A DNA stretch of 64,000 nucleotides, taken from an uncultured Solirubrobacteraceae bacterium. Lineage in GTDB: Bacteria; Actinomycetota; Thermoleophilia; Solirubrobacterales; Solirubrobacteraceae. Below the pieces are notes generated by a model. The model ran no database searches, was not told the origin of the DNA, and saw nothing but the letters and a program-made list of their open reading frames with translations. This document shows positions 33,062 to 43,867 of this stretch, piece after piece. The DNA lies in assembly GCA_902806175.1 (NCBI GenBank), contig CADCVQ010000087.1, forward strand, positions 1 through 64,000, given 5' to 3'. A program made the position numbers and the translations under genes. Each line of letters begins with the position of its first letter. The stretch's first letter is position 1.

Positions 33062-33883
33062 TCACTCGAGCACGAGCTGACCCGCGAACGGACCGCGCCC
33101 GCACAGGCACGCGGCTCCGCAGCGCGCGCCGAGGTCGATCGCCTCGGCAAGCTGCATCCCTGATCCGAGGCCGAAGGCCAGCGCCGCCGCGAAGGAATCG
33201 CCGCAGCCGTAGGCGTCGACCGGCGCACCGGGCAGTGCGGTCGCTTCCCACGAGCCCGAGGTCTCACCGGTCCACGCTCCGCCGGCCGCGCCGCGCGTGC
33301 TGACGACGAAGCGCGGCGCCGGGTCGAGCATGCCCGGCTCGTAGGCTTCGCCCGGATCGGACGCGCTGTGGACGAGGACGTCGAGCTGCACGCCCGACGC
33401 GGCGAGCGCCTCCATCGCGCGCGGCGTGGCGACGAGCACGCGCGCCGCCCGGGCCGCGCGCACCGCCGCGGGATCGCCGCCGGTCAGGTAGATGCCATCC
33501 AGCTGCCCGAGGTCGTCCCACGGCAGCGGGTCGGAGGACCACGGCACGATCCGGTCGCCGAGCACCGTGATCGTCCGCTCGCCGGCGCTGTCGAGGAAGG
33601 TGAACGTGCGTCGCTGCGCCATCTGCCGTTGCGCGGCGTGGACCTCGACGCCGAGCTCCTCGAGCCGGCGCACCACATGCGTCGCCGCGTCGTCGTCGCC
33701 CACCGCCGTGAGAAAGCGCGCGGCGCCCGCCAGCTTCTGCAGCTGCACGACGGCGACGGCGCCGCCACCGGCCGGCTCGGAGAACATCTCGCGCGCGTGG
33801 ACGATCTCGCCGGTGACCGGCACGCGGTCGACGACCGCGAACTGCACCAACTCCACGTGGCCGACGACGCCGACGCTGGTCAT
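33062..33883 (-). CDS. PfkB-family carbohydrate kinase
   Basis: The 273-residue protein has the PfkB glycine motif (GGGAVAVVQLQKLAG), RTFTFLDSAGERTI and the catalytic segment VDAYGCGDSFAAAL, where GCGD replaces the usual GAGD; the base Asp is kept. It lies 20 nt after the last mce gene on the same strand and is probably the final gene of that operon, although nothing else links it to lipid transport. Substrate unknown. Confidence 0.85.
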   Translation of the reverse strand: MTSVGVVGHVELVQFAVVDRVPVTGEIVHAREMFSEPAGGGAVAVVQLQKLAGAARFLTAVGDDDAATHVVRRLEELGVEVHAAQRQMAQRRTFTFLDSAGERTITVLGDRIVPWSSDPLPWDDLGQLDGIYLTGGDPAAVRAARAARVLVATPRAMEALAASGVQLDVLVHSASDPGEAYEPGMLDPAPRFVVSTRGAAGGAWTGETSGSWEATALPGAPVDAYGCGDSFAAALAFGLGSGMQLAEAIDLGARCGAACLCGRGPFAGQLVLE

Positions 33884-33903
33884 CGTCAGCCTCGCCGCTC
33901 GGC

Positions 33904-35343
33904 TCAGCCGCCGCCGGACTTCAGCCGGCCGCCGCCGCGCCCCGGCTCGACGTTCGGGAAGAACTGCGTGTTGCCCTCGAACGGCAGCGGTCCCTGCACC
34001 TTGCAGCCCGGCGTGTTCGACGGCCCCTTCTCGCCGCCGGCGTTCCTGCAGTCAAAGCTCGGCAGGATCAGCTTGCTCGGATCGCGCCTGTTGTCCGGGG
34101 CGCGATAGGCGTTGCCGCGGTTGGCACGTGAGCGCGCGGTCGCGGGCAACGACTCCGTGCCGCCGAGGATGATCTGCGGCAGTACGTGGCCGTTGCTCTT
34201 GCTGCCCGGCGGCGGCGTGCGGATGCCGCCGATCGCCGCCGGGCCGATGTTGAGGAAGTCCGTGACCTTGGCCTGGTTGAGCTCGAGGAAGCGCAGCAGC
34301 GGGTTAAGCTGCTGCAGGAACGGCCCGGTGGCGGCGAGCGTCGGATCCAGCCCGCGCAGGATCCGCGACAGCGCCGGCAGCCCCCTGTCGCCCGCGCTGA
34401 TCAGCGGGTCGACGTTCTCGAAGAGGTTCTCGAGATCGGGCGACAGGCGCTGCAGCGAGACGAGTGTCGGCTGCAGGTCGTCGAGCACGGGGTCGAGGTC
34501 GCGGATCAGCGGCTCCGTGTTGACCGAGAACGTGCGCAGCCGCGCGAGCGTCAGCTTGGACTCCTGCAGGAACGTCGGCAGGATGCGGATCGAGTCGGCG
34601 AGCGCGTCGCGGCGCTCGGAGAGCTCGTCGAACAGCTCGGTGTTGCTGCGCGTGAGCTCCACGAGCGCGGCCTCGTCGGCGGTCAGCTCCTCGAAGGTCC
34701 TGCCGGTGTTCTTGACGAGGTCGCGCAGCGCCGCGCGGCGGTCGTCGAGCACGTCGACGACGCTGCCTGCGCTCTCGGCGAAGACGGGCAGGTTGCCGAG
34801 CGCGTCGTTGAGGTCACGGCCGCGACCGGCCCCGGCCTTCGCGGCGCTTGCCATCCACTCCTGAAATGCCTCGCGCGTCGGCTCGTCGAAGATCTGCAGC
34901 AGCTCGTCGAACTCGACCGCCTGCGCGACACGGCCGTCGGACAGGCGCTCGCCCTCCGGGATGTCGGGCGCGCCGCGGCTGCCGGTCGTGACCTCCACGT
35001 ACGTCTCGCCGAGCAGCGTCTTCTGGCGCAGGATCGCGCGCGCGTCGGCCTTCATCGGCGCGTACTTGGACTCGAGCTCGATCGTCGCGATCGTCTTGTT
35101 GCCGCCCTCGGGCGAGAGCTCCTTCCTGACGACGCGGCCGATCTTCACGCCGGCCGTTCGCACGTCGGCCTGCGTGGCGAGCGTCGGCGCGTCGGTGAAG
35201 GCGACCTTCACCTGGTAGCCGCGCGGCTTGAGCGGGATCGCGCCGCCGAACGCCAGCCAGAGAAACAGCAGCAGGCAAAAGCACGTCAGGGCAAAGCCCG
35301 AGATGACGAGCAGGCGGCCGAGGGTCGGGCCTTCGGTGTTCAT
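33904..35343 (-). CDS. Mce-family protein, sixth gene of the cluster
   Basis: The 479-residue protein has an N-terminal helix (about 9-33), an MlaD/Mce domain (YQVKVAFTDAPTLATQADV then AGVKIGRV) and a long helical region to about 360, followed by a Pro/Gly-rich tail with two cysteines. Mce proteins form hexameric tunnels that move lipids between membranes or into the cell. The ATG at 35343 is chosen because it overlaps the upstream stop (ATGA) and directly precedes the helix; an in-frame start at 35490 is rejected. Confidence 0.9.
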   Translation of the reverse strand: MNTEGPTLGRLLVISGFALTCFCLLLFLWLAFGGAIPLKPRGYQVKVAFTDAPTLATQADVRTAGVKIGRVVRKELSPEGGNKTIATIELESKYAPMKADARAILRQKTLLGETYVEVTTGSRGAPDIPEGERLSDGRVAQAVEFDELLQIFDEPTREAFQEWMASAAKAGAGRGRDLNDALGNLPVFAESAGSVVDVLDDRRAALRDLVKNTGRTFEELTADEAALVELTRSNTELFDELSERRDALADSIRILPTFLQESKLTLARLRTFSVNTEPLIRDLDPVLDDLQPTLVSLQRLSPDLENLFENVDPLISAGDRGLPALSRILRGLDPTLAATGPFLQQLNPLLRFLELNQAKVTDFLNIGPAAIGGIRTPPPGSKSNGHVLPQIILGGTESLPATARSRANRGNAYRAPDNRRDPSKLILPSFDCRNAGGEKGPSNTPGCKVQGPLPFEGNTQFFPNVEPGRGGGRLKSGGG

Positions 35344-36707
35344 CCGCCACCGCCGTTGGCGCGCAGGGAGCGCTTGATGCTCAGCGAGCGCGTGTCCGGG
35401 TTCTTGCAGACGGTCGCCAGCAGCGGCGAGAGCCCGAGCGCGAACTCCGCCTGCGGCAGGTCGTTGACGAGGCTCGTCAGCGTCGAGCACGTGCCCGTCA
35501 GGAAGATCGGCCGCATCGGGCCGTGGGCGTCGTCGATGCTCTGCAGGTTCGCCGTCTGATGCGTCAGCCAGCCGAGGTGGAAGAGGTAGCCCTCGTCGCG
35601 GCCCGCCTTCTCGGGCGCCTCGCGGCCGCCGGGATTGTGACCGAGCATGTTCACGAAGTCGTTGAGCACCTTCGCGTTGCGGTCAAGCTCGGGGAACGTC
35701 CGCGCCAGTCCGCGAGCGGCCGGCGCGAGGTCCTTGACGAGCGGCACGGCCGTGCGCACGAACGGCCGGATCCGGCGGCGCACGGTCGGCGTGGCCTCGC
35801 GGGCGAAGGGGCTGACCGCGGCATTGACATTCTCCAGCTCGCGGACGGCCGGCAGCAGCGCCCGCGTCGCCGGCCCGAGCTCGTCTGCGAACGGCGCGAC
35901 GGCGTTCAGCGTCGAGGTCGCCGTCTGCAGCGTCGGCGCGAGCTCGCCGACGGCGTCGCGCAGGTCGTCGTCCTCGCGAGCGAAGGCGCGCAGGGTGCCC
36001 GACGCGCCGGAGACCAGCCGCGTCAGGTCCTCGGGGCGCTTGGCGAGCTCGGCATTGACCCGCGACAGCGACGTGACGAGGCGCCGCAGCGCGACGCGCT
36101 CCTTGGCGACCTCGCGATTGACACGCCCGAGGTCGCGCACGGTCGGGCCGTAGCGCTCGAGCACCTCGGCGAGGTTGTCGCCCTTGCCGCGCAGGCCCTC
36201 GCCGGCGCCGTTGGCCAGCAGCGTGATGTAGTCGCGCGTGCGGGCGTCGAGCTCGGACAGGATCTCGTCGAGGTCGACGTCCGTGAGCGCGCTCGAGATC
36301 GGGATCGTGAAGCCCTCCTTGACCGGCTCGCCCCGCTTGCCGGGAAAGACCTGGACGTACATGTCCTTCAGGCCGGTGCGCGGGCGCAGCAGCGCCTTCG
36401 CGTCGGGGTGGATGAGGTCCTCGTACTCCTGCTTGATGTCCAGCCCGACGATCGCGCGCCCGTTCTTCAGCGACACCTCGCCGATGTCGCCGATCTGCAC
36501 GCCGGCGACCTGCACCGTCTGGCCCTGGCCCGGCGTGACGGCCTGGGCGTTGTCGAGCTCGACGTTGATGCGCATCGGCGTGTCCTCGGCGAGCGGGAAG
36601 CGGAAGCGCTGGTTGTCGAGGATGTAGCCGCCGACGAGCGCGGCGATCGCGATGAGCACGACGACGGCGGCGAACGGGCCGACGTTCTTGCGGATGACGC
36701 GGGTCAC
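35340..36707 (-). CDS. Mce-family protein, fifth gene of the cluster
   Basis: At 455 residues, it has a membrane helix at about 11-30, the Mce domain (RINVELDNAQAV, QVAGVQIGDIGEV) and an extended alpha-helical stretch. It is the shortest of the six. GTG start with GTGA overlap to the gene before and ATGA to the gene after. It should supply one subunit of a heterohexameric Mce ring. Confidence 0.9.
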   Translation of the reverse strand: MTRVIRKNVGPFAAVVVLIAIAALVGGYILDNQRFRFPLAEDTPMRINVELDNAQAVTPGQGQTVQVAGVQIGDIGEVSLKNGRAIVGLDIKQEYEDLIHPDAKALLRPRTGLKDMYVQVFPGKRGEPVKEGFTIPISSALTDVDLDEILSELDARTRDYITLLANGAGEGLRGKGDNLAEVLERYGPTVRDLGRVNREVAKERVALRRLVTSLSRVNAELAKRPEDLTRLVSGASGTLRAFAREDDDLRDAVGELAPTLQTATSTLNAVAPFADELGPATRALLPAVRELENVNAAVSPFAREATPTVRRRIRPFVRTAVPLVKDLAPAARGLARTFPELDRNAKVLNDFVNMLGHNPGGREAPEKAGRDEGYLFHLGWLTHQTANLQSIDDAHGPMRPIFLTGTCSTLTSLVNDLPQAEFALGLSPLLATVCKNPDTRSLSIKRSLRANGGGG

Positions 36708-38278
36708 TTGCCCTGCCTCTTCAGCGCGCGATCGAGCTGCTTCGTGAGGCCGTTCTTCGACGCGATCGCGCGGATCTCGCTGACCGTGATCGCGCGGTCG
36801 AGCACCTTGACGTCCGAGCCCTTGCGCTTCAGCTCGGCGCGCAGCACCGCGACGGCGGCGGACTGCGCCTTGGACTCGCGCGTGCGCGCCGCGGGAGTGT
36901 TCGTGTCGACCGACTGCGGCGGCCCCTTCGGGATCGAGCGCAGGTCCGGCGGCTCCTGCGTCTCGCAGGGAACCTCGGGCTTCAGCGGCGGGCGCTCGCG
37001 GATCGGCGGCGGGTTGTTGCCGACGAGCGGCTCGGCAAGTGAGCCGAACAGCCCGTTGCCGATGTTGAACGTCTCGGCGCCGCCCGTGCCGAGCACCTTG
37101 AAGTACTGGCTGTTGGCGTCGAACGAGCGGCTCTCGCCGGCCAGGCCGGGCAGGAACTTCGCCATGTCCTCATAGACCGGGCCCTTCGTCGGAAACGCCT
37201 CGTCGACGAGCTTGGAATCCCCGAATGGCACGAGCACGTTGGACGTGCAGCTCGACAGCGCGCGCAGCTGTGAGAGCACGCCGACGCCGGTCGTCGCGAC
37301 CTGCGCCAGCGGCGGCGTCGCGCTGCGCAGGTTGCGCGCCAGCGTACCGAGCTCGCGATCCTGCACGAGCCCGCGCAGCTGCCTGACCAGCGGCAGCGTC
37401 GCGCGCACCGTCGGTCCGAGCGAGCGGATGCCGGGCCGTGCGCCGCGCGCGAAGCGGCGCACGTCGGGGAACGCGTCGTTGAGTGAGTCCAGCGCGGGCG
37501 TCGCCGCGCGCAGCGTGCGCGGCAGCTCGCCGACCGCGCTGCGCAGCGCGGTCTCCTCGTCGGCGAAGGCGGCGGCCGTCGTGTTGAAGTCCGCGACGAG
37601 CTCGGTGAGCCTGCGCGGCTCGTTGAGCGCCTGCGCCGCGACGCCGCCGCTGCGAACGAACCGGCTGAGGTCGCCGGGTTTCTTGCCGAGCAGCGCCTCC
37701 GCGACGATCGCGGTGAACTTGTAGGCGTTTGCCTGGTAGGGCAGCGACCGGTTGAAGGCCTTCGCGCCGCCGGCGTCCTGCGCCCTGCCGACCTCGACGA
37801 AGACCTGGCGCAGGTCGTTGCGCGTGTCGCTGTTGAGTGCCTGCAGCACCTGGTCGAACTGGACCGGGTTGCCGGTCCGGCCGACCGGGATCGTCTCACC
37901 CTCGTCGAGCTCGCCCGCGCCTGGCGTGCCGGGCGCCACCTCGACGAAGAAGTTGCCCTCGAGGAAGATCCGCGGACGGATCTTCGCGGCCGCGTCGGCG
38001 TAGACCGGCCGGCCCTTGTCGGTGATCGCGAACGTGACCGTCGCCGAGCTGGCGCCCGGCTTGGTGTGCGCGACATCCGTCACCTCGCCGACGTCGACGC
38101 CCGCGATCCGGACGGGCGAGCCCTTGTTGATCCCGCTCGTGTCACGGAACGCGGCCTTGATCTCGTACGGGCTGTTGACGAGCGGGACGTCCTTCGTGAA
38201 GCCGAGGTAGGTCCCCACGATCACGACGACGATCACGGCGATGCCGACGGCGAAGGCGCTCGGGCCGCGGTTTCTCAT
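36704..38278 (-). CDS. Mce-family protein, fourth gene of the cluster
   Basis: The 524-residue protein has a strong N-terminal helix (FAVGIAVIVVVIVGTYLGF), the Mce domain (YEIKAAFRDTSGINKGSPV, RIAGVDVGEVTDV) and a long helical part, then a Pro-rich segment (about 425-470) and a basic C-terminus. Overlaps of 4 nt join it to both neighbours. Confidence 0.9.
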   Translation of the reverse strand: MRNRGPSAFAVGIAVIVVVIVGTYLGFTKDVPLVNSPYEIKAAFRDTSGINKGSPVRIAGVDVGEVTDVAHTKPGASSATVTFAITDKGRPVYADAAAKIRPRIFLEGNFFVEVAPGTPGAGELDEGETIPVGRTGNPVQFDQVLQALNSDTRNDLRQVFVEVGRAQDAGGAKAFNRSLPYQANAYKFTAIVAEALLGKKPGDLSRFVRSGGVAAQALNEPRRLTELVADFNTTAAAFADEETALRSAVGELPRTLRAATPALDSLNDAFPDVRRFARGARPGIRSLGPTVRATLPLVRQLRGLVQDRELGTLARNLRSATPPLAQVATTGVGVLSQLRALSSCTSNVLVPFGDSKLVDEAFPTKGPVYEDMAKFLPGLAGESRSFDANSQYFKVLGTGGAETFNIGNGLFGSLAEPLVGNNPPPIRERPPLKPEVPCETQEPPDLRSIPKGPPQSVDTNTPAARTRESKAQSAAVAVLRAELKRKGSDVKVLDRAITVSEIRAIASKNGLTKQLDRALKRQGK

Positions 38279-39801
38279 GGCAGCCTCGGCGGCGCGATGC
38301 CAGTCGGCTCGGAGGAGAAGGACTGGCCTTCGGGGACGCGCGGGCGGCCCGCGTAGGTGGGGCCCTGGTTGCCCGGCGTCGCGGAGTCGACGGCGATCTT
38401 GTACTTCTCCGGGAAGCCCGTCGCCAGGCGCTCTGGGTAGCCGCGCTGGCCGGACTCGCAGTCGGCGTTGCCGCTGGCGTCGACCGCGGCGCCGGGGCCC
38501 TGGTCGTGCAGCGCGGCGGCGTCGCCGAACAGCGCGTGCTGGACGGGGTCGATCTCACCGCCGTTGGCGGGCTCGTGCGCGCCGAAGGACGCCATCGAGT
38601 TCTCCTGCTCGAGCGGCGCCATCTTGACCTGGACGCGCTGCACGGTGCCGGTCGCGTCCTCGTCGGAGATGTGGTCGGCGAGGTAGGTCCACCAGTACGT
38701 GAAGTAGTTGCAGACGGTCACGTGCGGGCCCGCCCACTGCAGCGTCGGGTTCAGCGTGGCCATCGTGTCGGTCAGGCCGCCGATCGTGATGTCCGTCGTC
38801 GGCGACTTGGCGAGCGAGCGCAGCGCGCGCAGCGAGCCCTCGAGATCGTCCGTGAACGCCGGCAGGCGCCGCAGCACGGGCGTCCCGGCGGCGAGCGCGC
38901 GGTTGACGGCGGGCACGCTCGTGCGGACCGCGCGCGCCGTCCCGCGAACCTCGTCGGAGATCTCCGCCAGGCGGGCGAGCAGCGGGCGCGTCTCGGGCAG
39001 GGAGTCGATCCCGACCTGCAGCGTCTCGGGCGAGCGCTCGATCGTCTCGCGCAGCGCCTGCGGGTCGCGCGACAGCGCCTCGAACGTGTCGGCCATCGCA
39101 GTGAAGCCGCGCGCGAGCGTGTCGGACTCGGGCGCGAGCACGCGGGTGAGGTCGGCCGTCTCGTCGAGCACGCGGTTGAGCCCGGTGTCGCGGTCGGCGA
39201 GCGTGCGCATCACCGCAGGCAGGTCGCCGAGCAGCTGCGGCAACGCGCCGAGCGTGCGGTTCAGCGCTTCGCCGCGGCCGGCGAGCGCGCTGCCGAGGAA
39301 GTCGAGGTTGCGGTCGACGCTCTCGCGCGTCGGCTCGTCGAAGATCGAGAAGAAGTCGTCGAGCTCGGGGCCGACGGTGTTGCCGCGCGTCGCGATGACC
39401 TCGCCCTCCTGCAGCGGCGTGCCGGACCTGCCGCGCAACAGGTCGACGTACTTCAGTCCCAGCGCCGAGCGCGGGCGGATGCGGATCGTCGTGTCCTGCG
39501 GGATCGGCACCGCCGCCTTGTCGAGCTTCAGCGTGAGCTGCGCCCCCCGGTCAGAACCGTTTCTAACCGGCTCGATCTTCGTCACCTGGCCGACCCGGAA
39601 GCCGCCCTCGCGGACCTCGTTGCCCACGACGAGGCGTGCCGCATCGGGCGTGTCGACCTTCATCTCGAAGGTCGGCACGAACGGCAGCCCGCGGTTGGCC
39701 TGGTAGGCGAGCAGCACCGCGACGACCACGACGACCACGGTGACGGCCCCGATGAAGACCGGGTTGGAGGCGACCGATGGCGCACGGCGGCCTCGCATCA
39801 C
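38275..39801 (-). CDS. Mce-family protein, third gene of the cluster
   Basis: The 508-residue protein has a helix over about 15-32 (FIGAVTVVVVVVAVLLAY), the Mce domain (FEMKVDTPDAARLVVGNEV, GGFRVGQVTKI) and a helical region; the last 100 residues are soluble and probably disordered. ATGA overlaps on both sides keep it in frame-coupled translation with the others. Confidence 0.9.
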   Translation of the reverse strand: MMRGRRAPSVASNPVFIGAVTVVVVVVAVLLAYQANRGLPFVPTFEMKVDTPDAARLVVGNEVREGGFRVGQVTKIEPVRNGSDRGAQLTLKLDKAAVPIPQDTTIRIRPRSALGLKYVDLLRGRSGTPLQEGEVIATRGNTVGPELDDFFSIFDEPTRESVDRNLDFLGSALAGRGEALNRTLGALPQLLGDLPAVMRTLADRDTGLNRVLDETADLTRVLAPESDTLARGFTAMADTFEALSRDPQALRETIERSPETLQVGIDSLPETRPLLARLAEISDEVRGTARAVRTSVPAVNRALAAGTPVLRRLPAFTDDLEGSLRALRSLAKSPTTDITIGGLTDTMATLNPTLQWAGPHVTVCNYFTYWWTYLADHISDEDATGTVQRVQVKMAPLEQENSMASFGAHEPANGGEIDPVQHALFGDAAALHDQGPGAAVDASGNADCESGQRGYPERLATGFPEKYKIAVDSATPGNQGPTYAGRPRVPEGQSFSSEPTGIAPPRLP

Positions 39802-41375
39802 CCCGGCCCCAGCAGGTAGTCGAGGAGGCTGCGTTCGCTCCCGGCGCTCGAGCGGGAGCTGCTGTTGCGCGGCAGGAGGTTGGGTACGTCGGGCAGCTTG
39901 GGCAGCTTGTCGAGCAGGTCCTTGGGGTCGGGCAGCAGCGACGGGGGGCGGGGCGCGGGCGGCGCAGGCGGCGCGGCCGGTCCCGGATCGGCCGGGGCCG
40001 GGGCCGGGGTGGCGGGCGTCTCAGCGGGCTTGTCGGGCGCCTTATCGGGCGCCGGCCTGGGCATGCGCTTCGTCGTCCGCGAAACGGCGCCCGTGGTCAC
40101 GCCCGGCTGATTGGGGCCGAGCCACGACTTGCAGCGCTTCGTGCGCTCGGGCTCCTCGACGGCGGTCTGCGCGTTCGTGTACTGCGTGCACTCGTTGATC
40201 AGGATGTTGAGCTTCAGCAGGAAGCCCTTGGAGTCGAAGATGTTGATCGCCTGCGACTGCACGAAGAAGTACTGCAGCAGCGCCTCCAGCCCGGTGAAGC
40301 CCTTGCCGGTCGGGCTGAGCCGGTTGGGCTCGACGGCGCGGTCGCGGTCGTTGATGTCCTCGAGCACGAAGCGCAGGTTGCGCATCGGCTCGGTGCTCGC
40401 GGTGCCCAGCGCGCGCAGCTCCTTCACGGTCGAGCGCGCCTCGCGGACCGCGCCGATGCCGGTCTGGGACGCCTCGCCGAGGCCGCGCACGGCGGGCCGC
40501 GCGGACCGCGCGAACGGCCCCAGGCGCTGCAGCAGCTCGGTGAGGTCGGGCGCCGCGCGGCGCAGGTCGCGCAGCGCGGGCGTCTGCAGGCGCGCCGTCG
40601 TGCCGAGGTCGGCGAGCGTCGGGCGCAGCTCGCGCAGGAAGCGCGGCAGCTTGTCGACCGTCTGCGCCAGCTCCTTGGATCGGCTGGCGCTCGCCTCGGT
40701 GGTGTCGGCGGCCTCGCGGATGAAGCGCCCGACGTCGCGGCGGTTGCCGGCGAGGCCGGCGAGCACGTCGTCGGCGTCGCGCGTGAGCTGGTTGATCGTG
40801 CGCCGGTTGGCGTCGAGGATGTCCAGCACCTTGTCGGTCTCGCGCAGCGCGGGGACCGCGCGGCGCAGCGTCGTCTGGATGTCCTCGCCGCGGGCGGTGA
40901 AGCCGATCCCGAGCTCGGTGAGGATCAGCCCGAAGCGCTCGCGCGCGGGGCGGCGCATGATGTCGAGCACGAGGTCGGGCGGGATCGTCCCGGCCGTCTG
41001 CTCGACGGGGATCGTGCGCGGGGCGGGGCTTTGGCGCTTGCCCGGGTCGCAGTCCAGGTAGTACTCGCCGATGAGCGACTGCGGCTTGACCTGACAGCGG
41101 ACGTCCGCCCGGAAGCCGGCGAAGCTCGGCAGCGTCACGACGATCTTCGCAAGCGCGCGGGCCGTCGAGCGCTGGACCTCGAGCTTGTCGATCTTGCCGA
41201 CGGTCACGCCCGAGGCGCGCAGGTCCGAGCCCTCGGTCAGGCCGAACGCGTTGTCGAGCACGACCGTGTAGCGCTGCTCGTTGCCGGCGTCGGCGCCGGC
41301 CGACGTCGCCGCGAGCGTCGCCGCCGCGCCGACGGCGAGCGCGAGCAGGAAGATGAGCAGCGGCGCAAGCCTCAT
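39798..41375 (-). CDS. Mce-family protein with Pro-rich tail, second gene
   Basis: At 525 residues, it has an N-terminal signal-like helix (LAPLLIFLLALAVGAAATLA), the Mce domain (YTVVLDNAFGLTEGSDL, RASGVTVGKIDKLEV), a helical region and a striking Pro/Ala-rich linker (about 430-475) before a C-terminal stretch ending SLLDYLLGPG. The linker may span peptidoglycan. The start overlaps the first mce gene by 4 nt. Confidence 0.9.
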   Translation of the reverse strand: MRLAPLLIFLLALAVGAAATLAATSAGADAGNEQRYTVVLDNAFGLTEGSDLRASGVTVGKIDKLEVQRSTARALAKIVVTLPSFAGFRADVRCQVKPQSLIGEYYLDCDPGKRQSPAPRTIPVEQTAGTIPPDLVLDIMRRPARERFGLILTELGIGFTARGEDIQTTLRRAVPALRETDKVLDILDANRRTINQLTRDADDVLAGLAGNRRDVGRFIREAADTTEASASRSKELAQTVDKLPRFLRELRPTLADLGTTARLQTPALRDLRRAAPDLTELLQRLGPFARSARPAVRGLGEASQTGIGAVREARSTVKELRALGTASTEPMRNLRFVLEDINDRDRAVEPNRLSPTGKGFTGLEALLQYFFVQSQAINIFDSKGFLLKLNILINECTQYTNAQTAVEEPERTKRCKSWLGPNQPGVTTGAVSRTTKRMPRPAPDKAPDKPAETPATPAPAPADPGPAAPPAPPAPRPPSLLPDPKDLLDKLPKLPDVPNLLPRNSSSRSSAGSERSLLDYLLGPG

Positions 41376-42766
41376 GGGCCGATCGGCACCTGGCTGTCGT
41401 CGCAGTTGAAGTCCGGCGACGGCTTGTACGGATTGGAGCCGTCGGGGGCGCGGCGCTCGATCGAGCCGGGGCAGCGGTTGTTGCGTTTGATCTTCACGTC
41501 GGCGCTGAGGATCAGGTTGCGCAGCTCGGCGGGGATCGGCAGCGCGTTGAGTGCGGGGCCGAGCGTGAAGCCGTTGAGCTGCAGGCCCGCGCGCGAGAAG
41601 TTGCCCAGCGCGTCGTAGGCGCCGCTCGTCGAGAAGTCGTCGAACCAGCCGACCAGGTCCGGCGCGTAGGGCCGCAGGAACCCGATCTGCTTCGTCGCGC
41701 CCTCGAAGGCCTTGATCGTCGCGGGGAACGCGCCGGGCCGCCGCTGGCCGTTGCGCTCGACGGTTTCGTTGGCGATCTGGTCAAGCGCAGGCTGGCGGCG
41801 CAGGAGCTCGACGAGGTCGTTGTCCTTGCCCGGGCGGCGCACGGTCTGCGACAGCTCGCGGATCGCCGGCCGGGCGTCGCGCGCGAACGGGCGCAGCTGG
41901 TTCATGAGCGCGATCAGGCTGTCGCGAACGACGGGCTTTGCCTCGTTGACGAGCGGGTCGAGGTCGTCCAGCGCCGAGCGCAGGTTGACGAACGTCGTGT
42001 TCGCCTTGCGCATGACGCCGGGCAGCAGGCCGACCGACTCGCCGAGCGACTCGCCGTTGGAGGTCAGCGCCGAGGTCGTCGTGGCGAGGTTGCGCGTCAG
42101 GTCGGCGAGCACGCCGTCCTGCGCGGAGACATCGGTCACCAGGCGCGACGTCTGCACGATGAAGCGCTCGAGGTCGGGCCTGTTGCGGTTCAGCTCGGCG
42201 AACAGCTGCGACGAGGAGGAGATCGCCGGGTTGAAGTAGCGCAACGCTGCGTTGGCCTCATCTTCATTGCCTGCTTGGAAGTCGCGCAGAAAGGCGACGC
42301 TCTTCTGCACGCCTCTGCGTGCCTCGGGATCGAACGTGTTGAAGATCTGATCCAGATCGACCGCCGCCCGCGTGCTCTGCGTCGGCAGGGTGGCGCCGTC
42401 GGCGATGTCCGCGCCGTCGGCGGGGCCGAGCTGCAGGTCGACGTAGCGGTTGGCCACGCCCGACAGTGAGGTCTGGCGGATGGTCGCGCGGGTCCCGCGG
42501 CGCAGCGGGTGATAGCCGTCGCCCTCGATGTTCAGCGTGACGCGCGCCTTGCCGTCGTCGGTCAGGACGATCTCGCCGACCGAGCCGACGGTGGCGCCGG
42601 CGACCTTGACGGCATTGCCCTTTACAAGCTGGCTGGCCGACACGAAGTCGGCCTTGACGGTGTAGCCGCCGCCTCCGGCGACGACGAGCACGAGCACGAC
42701 CAAGACGATCGCCGCGATCACCGCGCCCATCGCGACGACCGGCCCTTTCCCATCCCTAGGAAGCAC
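41372..42766 (-). CDS. Mce-family protein, first gene of the cluster
   Basis: The 464-residue protein starts with a transmembrane helix (VIAAIVLVVLVLVVAGGGG), then the Mce domain (YTVKADFVSASQLVKGNAV, KVAGATVGSVGEI) and helical body. The GTG at 42766 is preferred over the longer ATG at 42802 because it overlaps the stop of the upstream peptidase by one base (TAGTG), matching the tight coupling of the rest of the operon. Confidence 0.88.
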   Translation of the reverse strand: MLPRDGKGPVVAMGAVIAAIVLVVLVLVVAGGGGYTVKADFVSASQLVKGNAVKVAGATVGSVGEIVLTDDGKARVTLNIEGDGYHPLRRGTRATIRQTSLSGVANRYVDLQLGPADGADIADGATLPTQSTRAAVDLDQIFNTFDPEARRGVQKSVAFLRDFQAGNEDEANAALRYFNPAISSSSQLFAELNRNRPDLERFIVQTSRLVTDVSAQDGVLADLTRNLATTTSALTSNGESLGESVGLLPGVMRKANTTFVNLRSALDDLDPLVNEAKPVVRDSLIALMNQLRPFARDARPAIRELSQTVRRPGKDNDLVELLRRQPALDQIANETVERNGQRRPGAFPATIKAFEGATKQIGFLRPYAPDLVGWFDDFSTSGAYDALGNFSRAGLQLNGFTLGPALNALPIPAELRNLILSADVKIKRNNRCPGSIERRAPDGSNPYKPSPDFNCDDSQVPIGP

Positions 42767-43434
42767 TAGAGCACCAATGTAGAGCCCTGGAGCCTCAGCC
42801 AACGCCGGTGCTCCTCGTACTCGGGCCAGTGTCGGCGCACGAGCGCCCAGAAGTCAGCTGAGTGATCCATCACGCGCAGGTGACAGGCCTCGTGCCAGAC
42901 GACGTAGTCGAGGACCGGCTCGGGCGCCAGCAGCAGCCGCCAGTTGAAGCTCATCGCGCCGCCCGCCGAGCATGAGCCCCAGCGCGTGCGCTGCCCGCGG
43001 ATCGACAGCTTCGTGTACGTCGTGCCGAGCGCGCGCGCCGCGGCGTCCAGGCGCGGCCCGATCTCCTTCGCCGCCGCCCGTCGATACCAGCGCTCGATCG
43101 CAGCGGGCGCGCGCGCGGCATCGGCGGGCACGAGCAGGGTCTCGCCGCTGCGGTGCACGCGGGCCCGCGCCGGTTCGGGCCGCAGCGCCAGCGACGTGCC
43201 CAGGTAGGGAACCGTCGCACCGCGCGCGGCGAGCGTCATGCGGACGGTGTCCGCGTGGCGCAGGCGCCGCTCGATCCACGGCCGCAGCTCGGCGACGGCG
43301 GCCGGCGCGGCGCTCGCTGGGCTGCGCCGCGGCAGGATGACCTCGACGTCGCCGAGCGCGTCCACGCTCACGCGCACGCGCGACGCGCGATCGGAGCGGC
43401 GAATGCGGTAGGGGAGGTCGTCGGCGGCGTTCAT
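42766..43434 (-). CDS. YgjP-type (DUF45) zinc metallopeptidase
   Basis: The 222-residue protein carries the YgjP/M48-like signature: TRWGSCSAGGAMSFNWRLLL followed by DYVVWHEACHLRVMDHSADFW, where HEACH is the zinc motif (HExxH) and the later residues supply the third ligand. YgjP-like proteins are cytoplasmic metallopeptidases of unclear role. The ATG at 43434 is chosen at the start of homology. It is the first gene of the mce transcription unit, joined to it by a 1-nt overlap. Confidence 0.85.
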   Translation of the reverse strand: MNAADDLPYRIRRSDRASRVRVSVDALGDVEVILPRRSPASAAPAAVAELRPWIERRLRHADTVRMTLAARGATVPYLGTSLALRPEPARARVHRSGETLLVPADAARAPAAIERWYRRAAAKEIGPRLDAAARALGTTYTKLSIRGQRTRWGSCSAGGAMSFNWRLLLAPEPVLDYVVWHEACHLRVMDHSADFWALVRRHWPEYEEHRRWLRLQGSTLVL

Positions 43435-43572: not shown

Positions 43573-43578
43573 CATAAT
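43573..43578 (+). promoter_or_regulatory. -10 box CATAAT
   Basis: CATAAT ends 7 nt before a GTG at 43586, the same spacing as at other leaderless starts here. It overlaps an alternative ATG at 43577, which argues for the GTG. Confidence 0.45.
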
Positions 43579-43585
43579 GGCGGGC

Positions 43586-43867
43586 GTGTCGGAGCAATCG
43601 ATCGTCAAACTTCCGCGTTCCGTGCGCGCCCCGTTTGACGTGTACGTCAACGGCGTGCACCAGGAGCAGGGCGTCGACTTCGAGCTGCGCGACAGCTCGC
43701 TCGTCTTCGGCCGCGAGCTGAAGAAGGAGGGCGACCTCGGCTTCTGGCGCTGGTTTCTCGGCGCCTGGGGCGTCGGGACGTACCGCCAGAACGACTCCGT
43801 CGACGTGCGCTACGAGCGTGACGGCCACCCCGTGCTGCTCGAAGGATTGGACATCGAGCAGGAGTGA
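43586..43867 (+). CDS. Conserved-type small protein upstream of an MFS exporter
   Basis: The 93-residue protein (starting SEQSIVKLPRSVRAPFDVYV) is soluble and beta-rich, with VNGVHQEQGVDFELRDSSLVF and a Trp-rich FWRWFLGAWGVG stretch. No family is named with confidence. The GTG at 43586 is chosen on -10 spacing; an ATG at 43577 is the alternative. It overlaps the exporter gene by GTGA. Confidence 0.65.
   Translation: MSEQSIVKLPRSVRAPFDVYVNGVHQEQGVDFELRDSSLVFGRELKKEGDLGFWRWFLGAWGVGTYRQNDSVDVRYERDGHPVLLEGLDIEQE

What the first reader, a model, noticed from the sequence alone, without database searches (positions are those of the whole stretch)
33062..43434. Six-gene mce operon without YrbE permeases, led by a YgjP-type peptidase
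All six Mce genes are joined by 4-nt stop/start overlaps and the first overlaps the peptidase gene by 1 nt, so translation is tightly coupled. Known actinobacterial mce operons begin with two yrbE permease genes; here the upstream gene is a metallopeptidase and the downstream gene is a PfkB kinase. Either the permease lies elsewhere or this Mce tunnel works with a different partner.
Basis: partly seen in the sequence, partly recalled or inferred. Interest (0 to 1): 0.65.

Follow-up and report, generated by a model that had tools for sequence, protein, structure and literature searches.

The report
Lipid tunnel genes separated from pump
Six tunnel-protein genes of a bacterial lipid transporter sit far from the membrane pump they almost certainly work with; in this bacterial order the two halves are separate genetic modules that are kept or lost together, and one pump can be left to serve several tunnels.

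Summary
In detail: six mce genes joined by 4-nt overlaps, led by a YgjP-type gene (1-nt overlap), followed by a PfkB gene, with no yrbE in the window. The permease is not missing. The same genome (Solirubrobacteraceae by its relatives) holds exactly six MCE domains, all here, and exactly one yrbE pair on another contig, as yrbE1-yrbE2-(Ala/Pro-rich ORF)-mkl-MMPL. Sister genomes carry the canonical yrbE1-yrbE2-mkl-mce1..6-MMPL operon, so this is a "hollowed" engine. The window cassette belongs to a clade of 21 stand-alone cassettes, none with yrbE nearby. Across 299 Thermoleophilia genomes Mce and YrbE occur in the same 93, with no confident discordance. A congener that lost the system keeps fossils at both sites: an mce6 tail between YgjP and PfkB, and yrbE1/yrbE2 scraps at the engine site. 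G207 has one hollow engine and two separate cassettes. Best reading: a Mce1-type lipid ABC transporter whose tunnel is encoded in trans to a YrbE-Mkl engine. YgjP and PfkB are local bystanders. Physical assembly, substrate and direction are inferred. New variant of a known kind.

The parts
42766..43434 (-). YgjP-like metal-dependent hydrolase/peptidase gene with an HExxH motif (HEACH); first gene of the run, probably a bystander that shares the transcript
   Evidence: PF01863 E 2.9e-50; upstream of mce1 only in genus g1 and G033; kept in G001 after loss of the mce genes
41372..42766 (-). mce1: N-terminal TM helix, MCE barrel, long helical region
   Evidence: PF02470; TIGR00996 E 1.4e-32, 113 bits, below its 140.5 cut-off; PDB 8fed_B E 6.7e-10; low-confidence AF2 model
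39798..41375 (-). mce2
   Evidence: PF02470 E 1.5e-11; TIGR00996 E 1.2e-25, below cut-off; 4-nt overlap
38275..39801 (-). mce3
   Evidence: PF02470 E 3.3e-13; 4-nt overlap
36704..38278 (-). mce4
   Evidence: PF02470 E 3.2e-15; PDB 8fed_C (Mce1C) E 5.7e-9
35340..36707 (-). mce5
   Evidence: PF02470 E 4.1e-9; TIGR00996 E 5.8e-25, below cut-off
33904..35343 (-). mce6; its C-terminal end survives as a fossil in G001
   Evidence: PF02470 E 1.2e-15; 8fed_B E 5.6e-8; fossil in L098
33062..33883 (-). PfkB-family sugar/nucleoside kinase, last gene of the run, probably a bystander
   Evidence: PF00294 E 1.3e-23; in G033 and G011 it lies on a different contig from the YgjP gene (and from mce in G033)
43577..43867 (+). 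divergent small gene that marks the conserved chromosomal site, with or without the mce cassette
   Evidence: Same position next to YgjP in L050-L053, L056 and in mce-less G001 and G011

Best explanation
The six genes encode the six-subunit MCE tunnel of a Mce1-type lipid ABC transporter. Its motor, the permease pair YrbE1/YrbE2 and the ATPase Mkl, is encoded in trans, in a second operon of the same genome (C106:17324-21221, followed by an MMPL transporter gene). Ancestrally the order had a full operon yrbE1-yrbE2-mkl-mce1..6-MMPL and also, in addition, stand-alone mce cassettes of a separate lineage. In this lineage the operon lost its own mce genes ('hollow engine') and the stand-alone cassette in the window is the only tunnel left. 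Mce proteins would be inserted by their N-terminal TM helices around the YrbE dimer, form a hollow tube, and pass lipid while Mkl hydrolyses ATP. Shown: gene content, separation, shared retention and shared loss, tree position. Inferred: physical assembly, substrate and direction of transport. YgjP and PfkB are neighbours, probably co-transcribed, without a needed role.
For: Exactly 6 MCE domains (all here) and exactly one YrbE pair in a 97% complete genome; the YrbE locus also encodes an Mkl/MlaF ATPase whose best PDB match is MceG of the Mce1 complex (8fed_G, E 6.6e-73), and YrbE1 best matches YrbE1A of that complex (E 1.2e-35). Canonical operons yrbE-yrbE-mkl-mce1..6-MMPL in sister genomes, and hollow yrbE-yrbE-mkl-MMPL plus unlinked cassette in G000, G002, G004, G006, G013, G033, G043, G056, G041, G047, G053, G059. 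Co-occurrence of Mce and YrbE in the same 93 of 299 genomes, with 10 order members from six genera lacking both. Double fossil in G001: mce6 tail, 59 bits, E 1.7e-12, and yrbE2 scrap, 50 bits, E 3e-10, against shuffled maxima of 25 and 29 bits. Cassette clade of 21, all without YrbE within the sequence examined. No PqiA/LetA in the genome.
Against: No physical or genetic interaction data. The genome is a draft of 183 contigs, so the linkage statement rests on two contigs; closed and near-closed relatives (G037, G053, G207, G043, G056) carry the generality. G009 has about 10 Mce and no YrbE hit, but is only 88% complete in 510 contigs. The AF2 model is of low confidence (pLDDT 40), so the tunnel fold is inferred from sequence families. 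Co-loss of two loci could also reflect a shared loss of need without physical partnership.
Confidence: 0.87

Rival explanations
1. The cassette works with a different, non-YrbE partner (LetA/PqiA-like protein, MMPL protein, or as a passive tunnel), and the YrbE-Mkl locus serves something else.
For: No YrbE near any of the 21 clade cassettes; LetB and PqiB in E. coli show that MCE proteins can use non-MlaE partners (established knowledge).
Against: No PqiA/LetA homologue in the genome; Mce and YrbE found in the same 93 genomes of 299; both decayed together in G001; if YrbE-Mkl had another job it should survive in some genome without any Mce.
Confidence: 0.06
2. YgjP is a functional part of the system, for example a protease that processes or turns over Mce subunits, and its translational coupling matters.
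For: 1-nt overlap and conserved order in the genus and in G033.
Against: In G033 the gap is 178 nt; YgjP stays at 84% identity in G001 after loss of the mce genes and in G011 without a cassette; most clade cassettes have other neighbours; 10 of 14 unrelated control genomes have YgjP, most of them without Mce.
Confidence: 0.06
3. The separation is a local rearrangement or an assembly artefact of this one draft genome.
For: Draft with 183 contigs; the engine contig C106 ends inside the MMPL gene.
Against: The same split in congeners, in two other families, in the single-contig genome G053 and in G207 (6 contigs); engine next to the ammonium transporter and GlnK genes also in G002, G006, G013, G033.
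Confidence: 0.01

Closest known systems
Mycobacterial Mce1 / Mce4 lipid importers (YrbE-A/B, Mce A-F, MceG)
   Same: Six consecutive single-MCE-domain proteins with a long helical tail; two YrbE permeases; an Mkl/MceG-type ATPase encoded apart from the mce genes. Best PDB matches of Mce, YrbE1 and Mkl are chains of the M. smegmatis Mce1 complex 8fed.
   Different: In mycobacteria the yrbE pair heads each mce operon and only the ATPase is unlinked; here yrbE and ATPase stay together and the six mce genes are unlinked. The ATPase here (284 aa) lacks the about 120-aa C-terminal extension reported for MceG (PMC9882608). A gene for an MMPL protein adjoins the engine.
Canonical Solirubrobacterales operon yrbE1-yrbE2-mkl-mce1..6-MMPL (L079-L084, L135, L136)
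   Same: Same components in the same order once the cassette is put aside; engine proteins are orthologous (engine tree).
   Different: The mce genes are absent from between mkl and MMPL; the window cassette is a separate lineage.
oMce1A (MSMEG_6540), an orphan Mce protein that joins the Mce1 complex (PMC9882608)
   Same: Shows that an MCE subunit encoded away from yrbE can assemble with YrbE encoded elsewhere.
   Different: One substitute subunit only, not a full six-subunit cassette.
E. coli LetB/LetA and PqiB/PqiA
   Same: MCE tunnel without an MlaE-type permease next to it.
   Different: Multi-MCE-domain proteins with LetA/PqiA partners; here one MCE domain per protein and no PqiA-family gene.

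Membership tests
Mce1-type MCE lipid ABC transporter | Six different single-MCE-domain subunits | tested here: met
   Six PF02470 matches over cut-off, one per protein
Mce1-type MCE lipid ABC transporter | Actinobacterial Mce family model TIGR00996 | tested here: inconclusive
   Long matches in the three subunits tested, E 1e-25 to 1e-32, but 88-113 bits against a cut-off of 140.5
Mce1-type MCE lipid ABC transporter | Pair of YrbE permeases in the genome | tested here: met
   One PF02405 pair, E 1e-57 and 8.5e-54, on C106
Mce1-type MCE lipid ABC transporter | Mkl/MceG/MlaF ATPase | tested here: met
   284-aa ATPase in the yrbE operon; 8fed_G E 6.6e-73
Mce1-type MCE lipid ABC transporter | Assembly of Mce hexamer with YrbE2-ATPase2 and lipid transport | not testable with these tools
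   Needs biochemistry; AF2 model of mce1 too weak
mce operon as defined by Casali and Riley 2007 (two YrbE and six Mce in one cluster) | yrbE pair directly upstream of the six mce genes | tested here: not met
   No YrbE on the contig; pair unlinked; definition in PMC1810536
LetB/PqiB systems | Several MCE domains per protein | tested here: not met
   One MCE domain per protein
LetB/PqiB systems | LetA/PqiA (PF04403) partner | tested here: not met
   No match in the genome; control E. coli rings
YgjP-like (PF01863) | Family model and HExxH motif | tested here: met
   171.6 bits against cut-off 26; HEACH motif in the translation. Peptidase activity not testable

The most novel reading that the evidence does not exclude
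In Solirubrobacterales one YrbE-Mkl-MMPL engine is a common motor for several interchangeable six-subunit Mce tunnels encoded as free-standing cassettes, so substrate choice is made by exchanging whole tunnels on one pump. G207 (6 contigs, 95% complete) has a single hollow engine and two complete unlinked cassettes; single-contig G037 has one YrbE pair and two cassettes.
Probability: 0.5. Interest if true: 0.7.

Novelty: new variant of a known kind. Interest (0 to 1): 0.6.

Why it matters
The Actinomycetales survey concluded that mce operons descend from an eight-gene cluster without shuffling between operons (PMC1810536). Here an actinobacterial order breaks that rule: tunnel and motor are separate modules, the motor's own tunnel genes can be lost, and a different tunnel lineage remains. 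This makes the open question of what sets MCE specificity testable: whether a YrbE-Mkl motor accepts tunnels that it did not co-evolve with in one operon, and whether one motor is shared by several tunnels. It also warns against reading an mce cluster without yrbE as evidence of a new mechanism.

Tried and rejected
Different partner of the LetA/PqiA type: searched, absent. Simple translocation of the canonical mce block out of its operon: rejected for this genome because the window cassette falls outside the canonical clade; it may hold for family f3, whose unlinked cassettes nest within the canonical clade. Six cassettes on one YrbE pair in G054: withdrawn as a clean example, because contig C14 ends inside a further yrbE2 next to mkl. 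G058 as a genome with Mce and no YrbE: rejected, its YrbE2 end lies at a contig edge beside mce. Substrate hints from neighbours: flanking genes of the cassettes differ (uracil-DNA glycosylase, DUF429, adenylate cyclase, SDR), so none taken. AF2 of mce1 with six sequences gave pLDDT 40, so no fold search was run on it. IQ-TREE bootstrap did not finish in time; only its topology, equal to FastTree in the main groups, is used. The single genome-contig scan found only 8 loci, but named the group.

Full report
OBSERVATION. The window carries, on the minus strand, a YgjP-like gene (42766-43434), six genes with one MCE domain each (33904-42766) and a PfkB gene (33062-33883). The five mce joints are 4-nt overlaps and YgjP/mce1 read TAGTG. 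No YrbE/MlaE match lies on this 65.3-kb contig.

WHERE THE PERMEASE IS. Searching the whole genome (4.12 Mb, 183 contigs, 97% complete) gives six MCE domains, all in this run, and two YrbE proteins, both on contig C106. Reading C106 shows GlnA (divergent), ammonium transporter, GlnK, PucR regulator, then yrbE1 (C106:17324-18130), yrbE2, an Ala/Pro-rich ORF of 409 aa, an Mkl/MlaF-type ATPase of 284 aa, and the start of an MMPL-like gene cut by the contig end (MMPL family confirmed on the homologue in G006). The ATPase and YrbE1 have MceG and YrbE1A of the mycobacterial Mce1 complex as best PDB relatives, as do mce1, mce4 and mce6 with Mce chains of the same complex. There is no PqiA/LetA homologue.

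RELATIVES. The closest named loci are MAGs of Solirubrobacteraceae / Solirubrobacterales. In sister genomes the canonical layout is yrbE1-yrbE2-mkl-mce1..6-MMPL (L079-L084; L135, L136). In G000, G002, G004, G006, G013, G033 (same family), G043, G056 (family f2) and G041, G047, G053, G059 (family f3) the engine is yrbE1-yrbE2-mkl with an MMPL gene downstream and no mce between, and mce cassettes lie elsewhere. The distance from mkl to MMPL is short in most (for example about 36 nt in G000, 166 nt in G043, about 100 nt in G207), but 1.6 kb in G013 and 3.9 kb in G041. Engine neighbours (ammonium transporter, GlnK) are conserved in G002, G006, G013, G033.

TWO CASSETTE LINEAGES. A tree of concatenated Mce1-6 from 39 cassettes puts the window cassette in a group of 21 cassettes from families f1 and f2, none with YrbE in the sequence examined (4.1-21 kb upstream, 3.2-34 kb downstream). 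FastTree support for the split from the canonical clade plus G053b is 0.982, and 1.000 for the canonical side; the IQ-TREE topology agrees but has no bootstrap. The canonical clade contains nearly all yrbE-linked cassettes, and also the unlinked cassettes of family f3, which therefore look like a second, independent separation. The engine tree groups by family, with hollow and complete engines interleaved (several nodes weakly supported). The simplest history for this genome is loss of the operon's own mce genes while a stand-alone cassette of the other lineage stayed.

CO-OCCURRENCE. In 299 Thermoleophilia genomes YrbE and Mce families pass their cut-offs in 93 genomes each, and the lists are the same 93, all in this order. 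Ten order members have neither (G001, G005, G007, G011, G022, G030, G031, G217, G239, G309; six genera in two families). One weak hit on each side outside the order is ignored. In the separate 61-genome set G009 (88% complete, 510 contigs) has Mce without YrbE; G058 seemed so but has a YrbE2 end at a contig edge next to mce.

FOSSILS. G001, same genus, 97% complete, 10 contigs, has neither family. At the YgjP site it has YgjP, then about 40 codons homologous to the end of mce6, then PfkB (62% identity, 59 bits, E 1.7e-12; shuffled maximum 25 bits). At the engine site (ammonium transporter-GlnK-PucR) it has the first 19 codons of yrbE1 (31 bits, weak alone), the last 48 codons of yrbE2 (50 bits, E 3e-10) and part of the Ala/Pro-rich ORF (102 bits; this ORF is of low complexity, so the score is generous), and no mkl or MMPL. 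These two sites are on different contigs (C3 and C5). In G005 the engine site is clean, and in G011 both the YgjP site and the examined engine side are empty. Shared decay at two unlinked loci is the strongest evidence here that the two halves are one system.

ONE ENGINE, SEVERAL TUNNELS. G207 (6 contigs, 95% complete) has one YrbE pair, in a hollow engine, and 12 Mce in two complete cassettes on other contigs. Single-contig G037 has one pair and 12 Mce in two cassettes, one linked and one not. G040, G052 and G194 show similar numbers. If every cassette is used, the engine must be shared. That is inference, not shown.

YGJP AND PFKB. YgjP precedes mce1 only in this genus and in G033; in G043 a YgjP gene lies 1.7 kb away. 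It survives loss of the cassette. PfkB adjoins only in this genus and lies elsewhere in G033 and G011. Both are read as neighbours at the site where the cassette sits.

MECHANISM. By homology with the Mce1 complex (PMC9882608): N-terminal helices of six Mce proteins surround a YrbE1-YrbE2 dimer driven by two ATPases, the MCE ring and helical tails form a tube, and lipid moves through it. An orphan Mce (oMce1A) joining Mce1 shows that assembly in trans occurs in mycobacteria (same paper). Substrate and direction are unknown.

PRIOR WORK. Casali and Riley (PMC1810536) found mce genes almost always downstream of a yrbE pair, YrbE in all and only the mce-bearing Actinomycetales, and no shuffling between operons. 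The co-occurrence rule extends to Thermoleophilia; the linkage rule does not. My paper searches found no account of this split in Solirubrobacterales, but the library holds open-licence papers only.

Noticed in passing
L010:8103-9332 (own genome, C106): A 409-aa Ala/Pro-rich repetitive ORF lies between yrbE2 and mkl in this genus (also G002, G003, weakly G006; fragment in G001) but not in other genera; no informative family.
   Followed up: partly
L098:9608-9727 and L120:4605-5194: Gene fossils of mce6, yrbE1 and yrbE2 in G001, a natural loss of the whole system at two unlinked sites.
   Followed up: yes
L071:11396-12188: yrbE2 of G056 reads in three overlapping frame pieces: either sequencing errors or a decaying permease in a genome that still has six Mce genes.
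   Followed up: no
L086-L089, L112-L116: Family f3 shows an independent separation: unlinked cassettes nested within the canonical mce clade, with hollow engines.
   Followed up: partly
L099-L103, L065: G054 carries 36 MCE domains in six cassettes; one belongs to a divergent yrbE-linked operon without mkl close by.
   Followed up: partly
L070, L074, L080: An MMPL-family transporter gene is a steady neighbour of the YrbE-Mkl engine, with or without mce genes between; its role is unknown.
   Followed up: no
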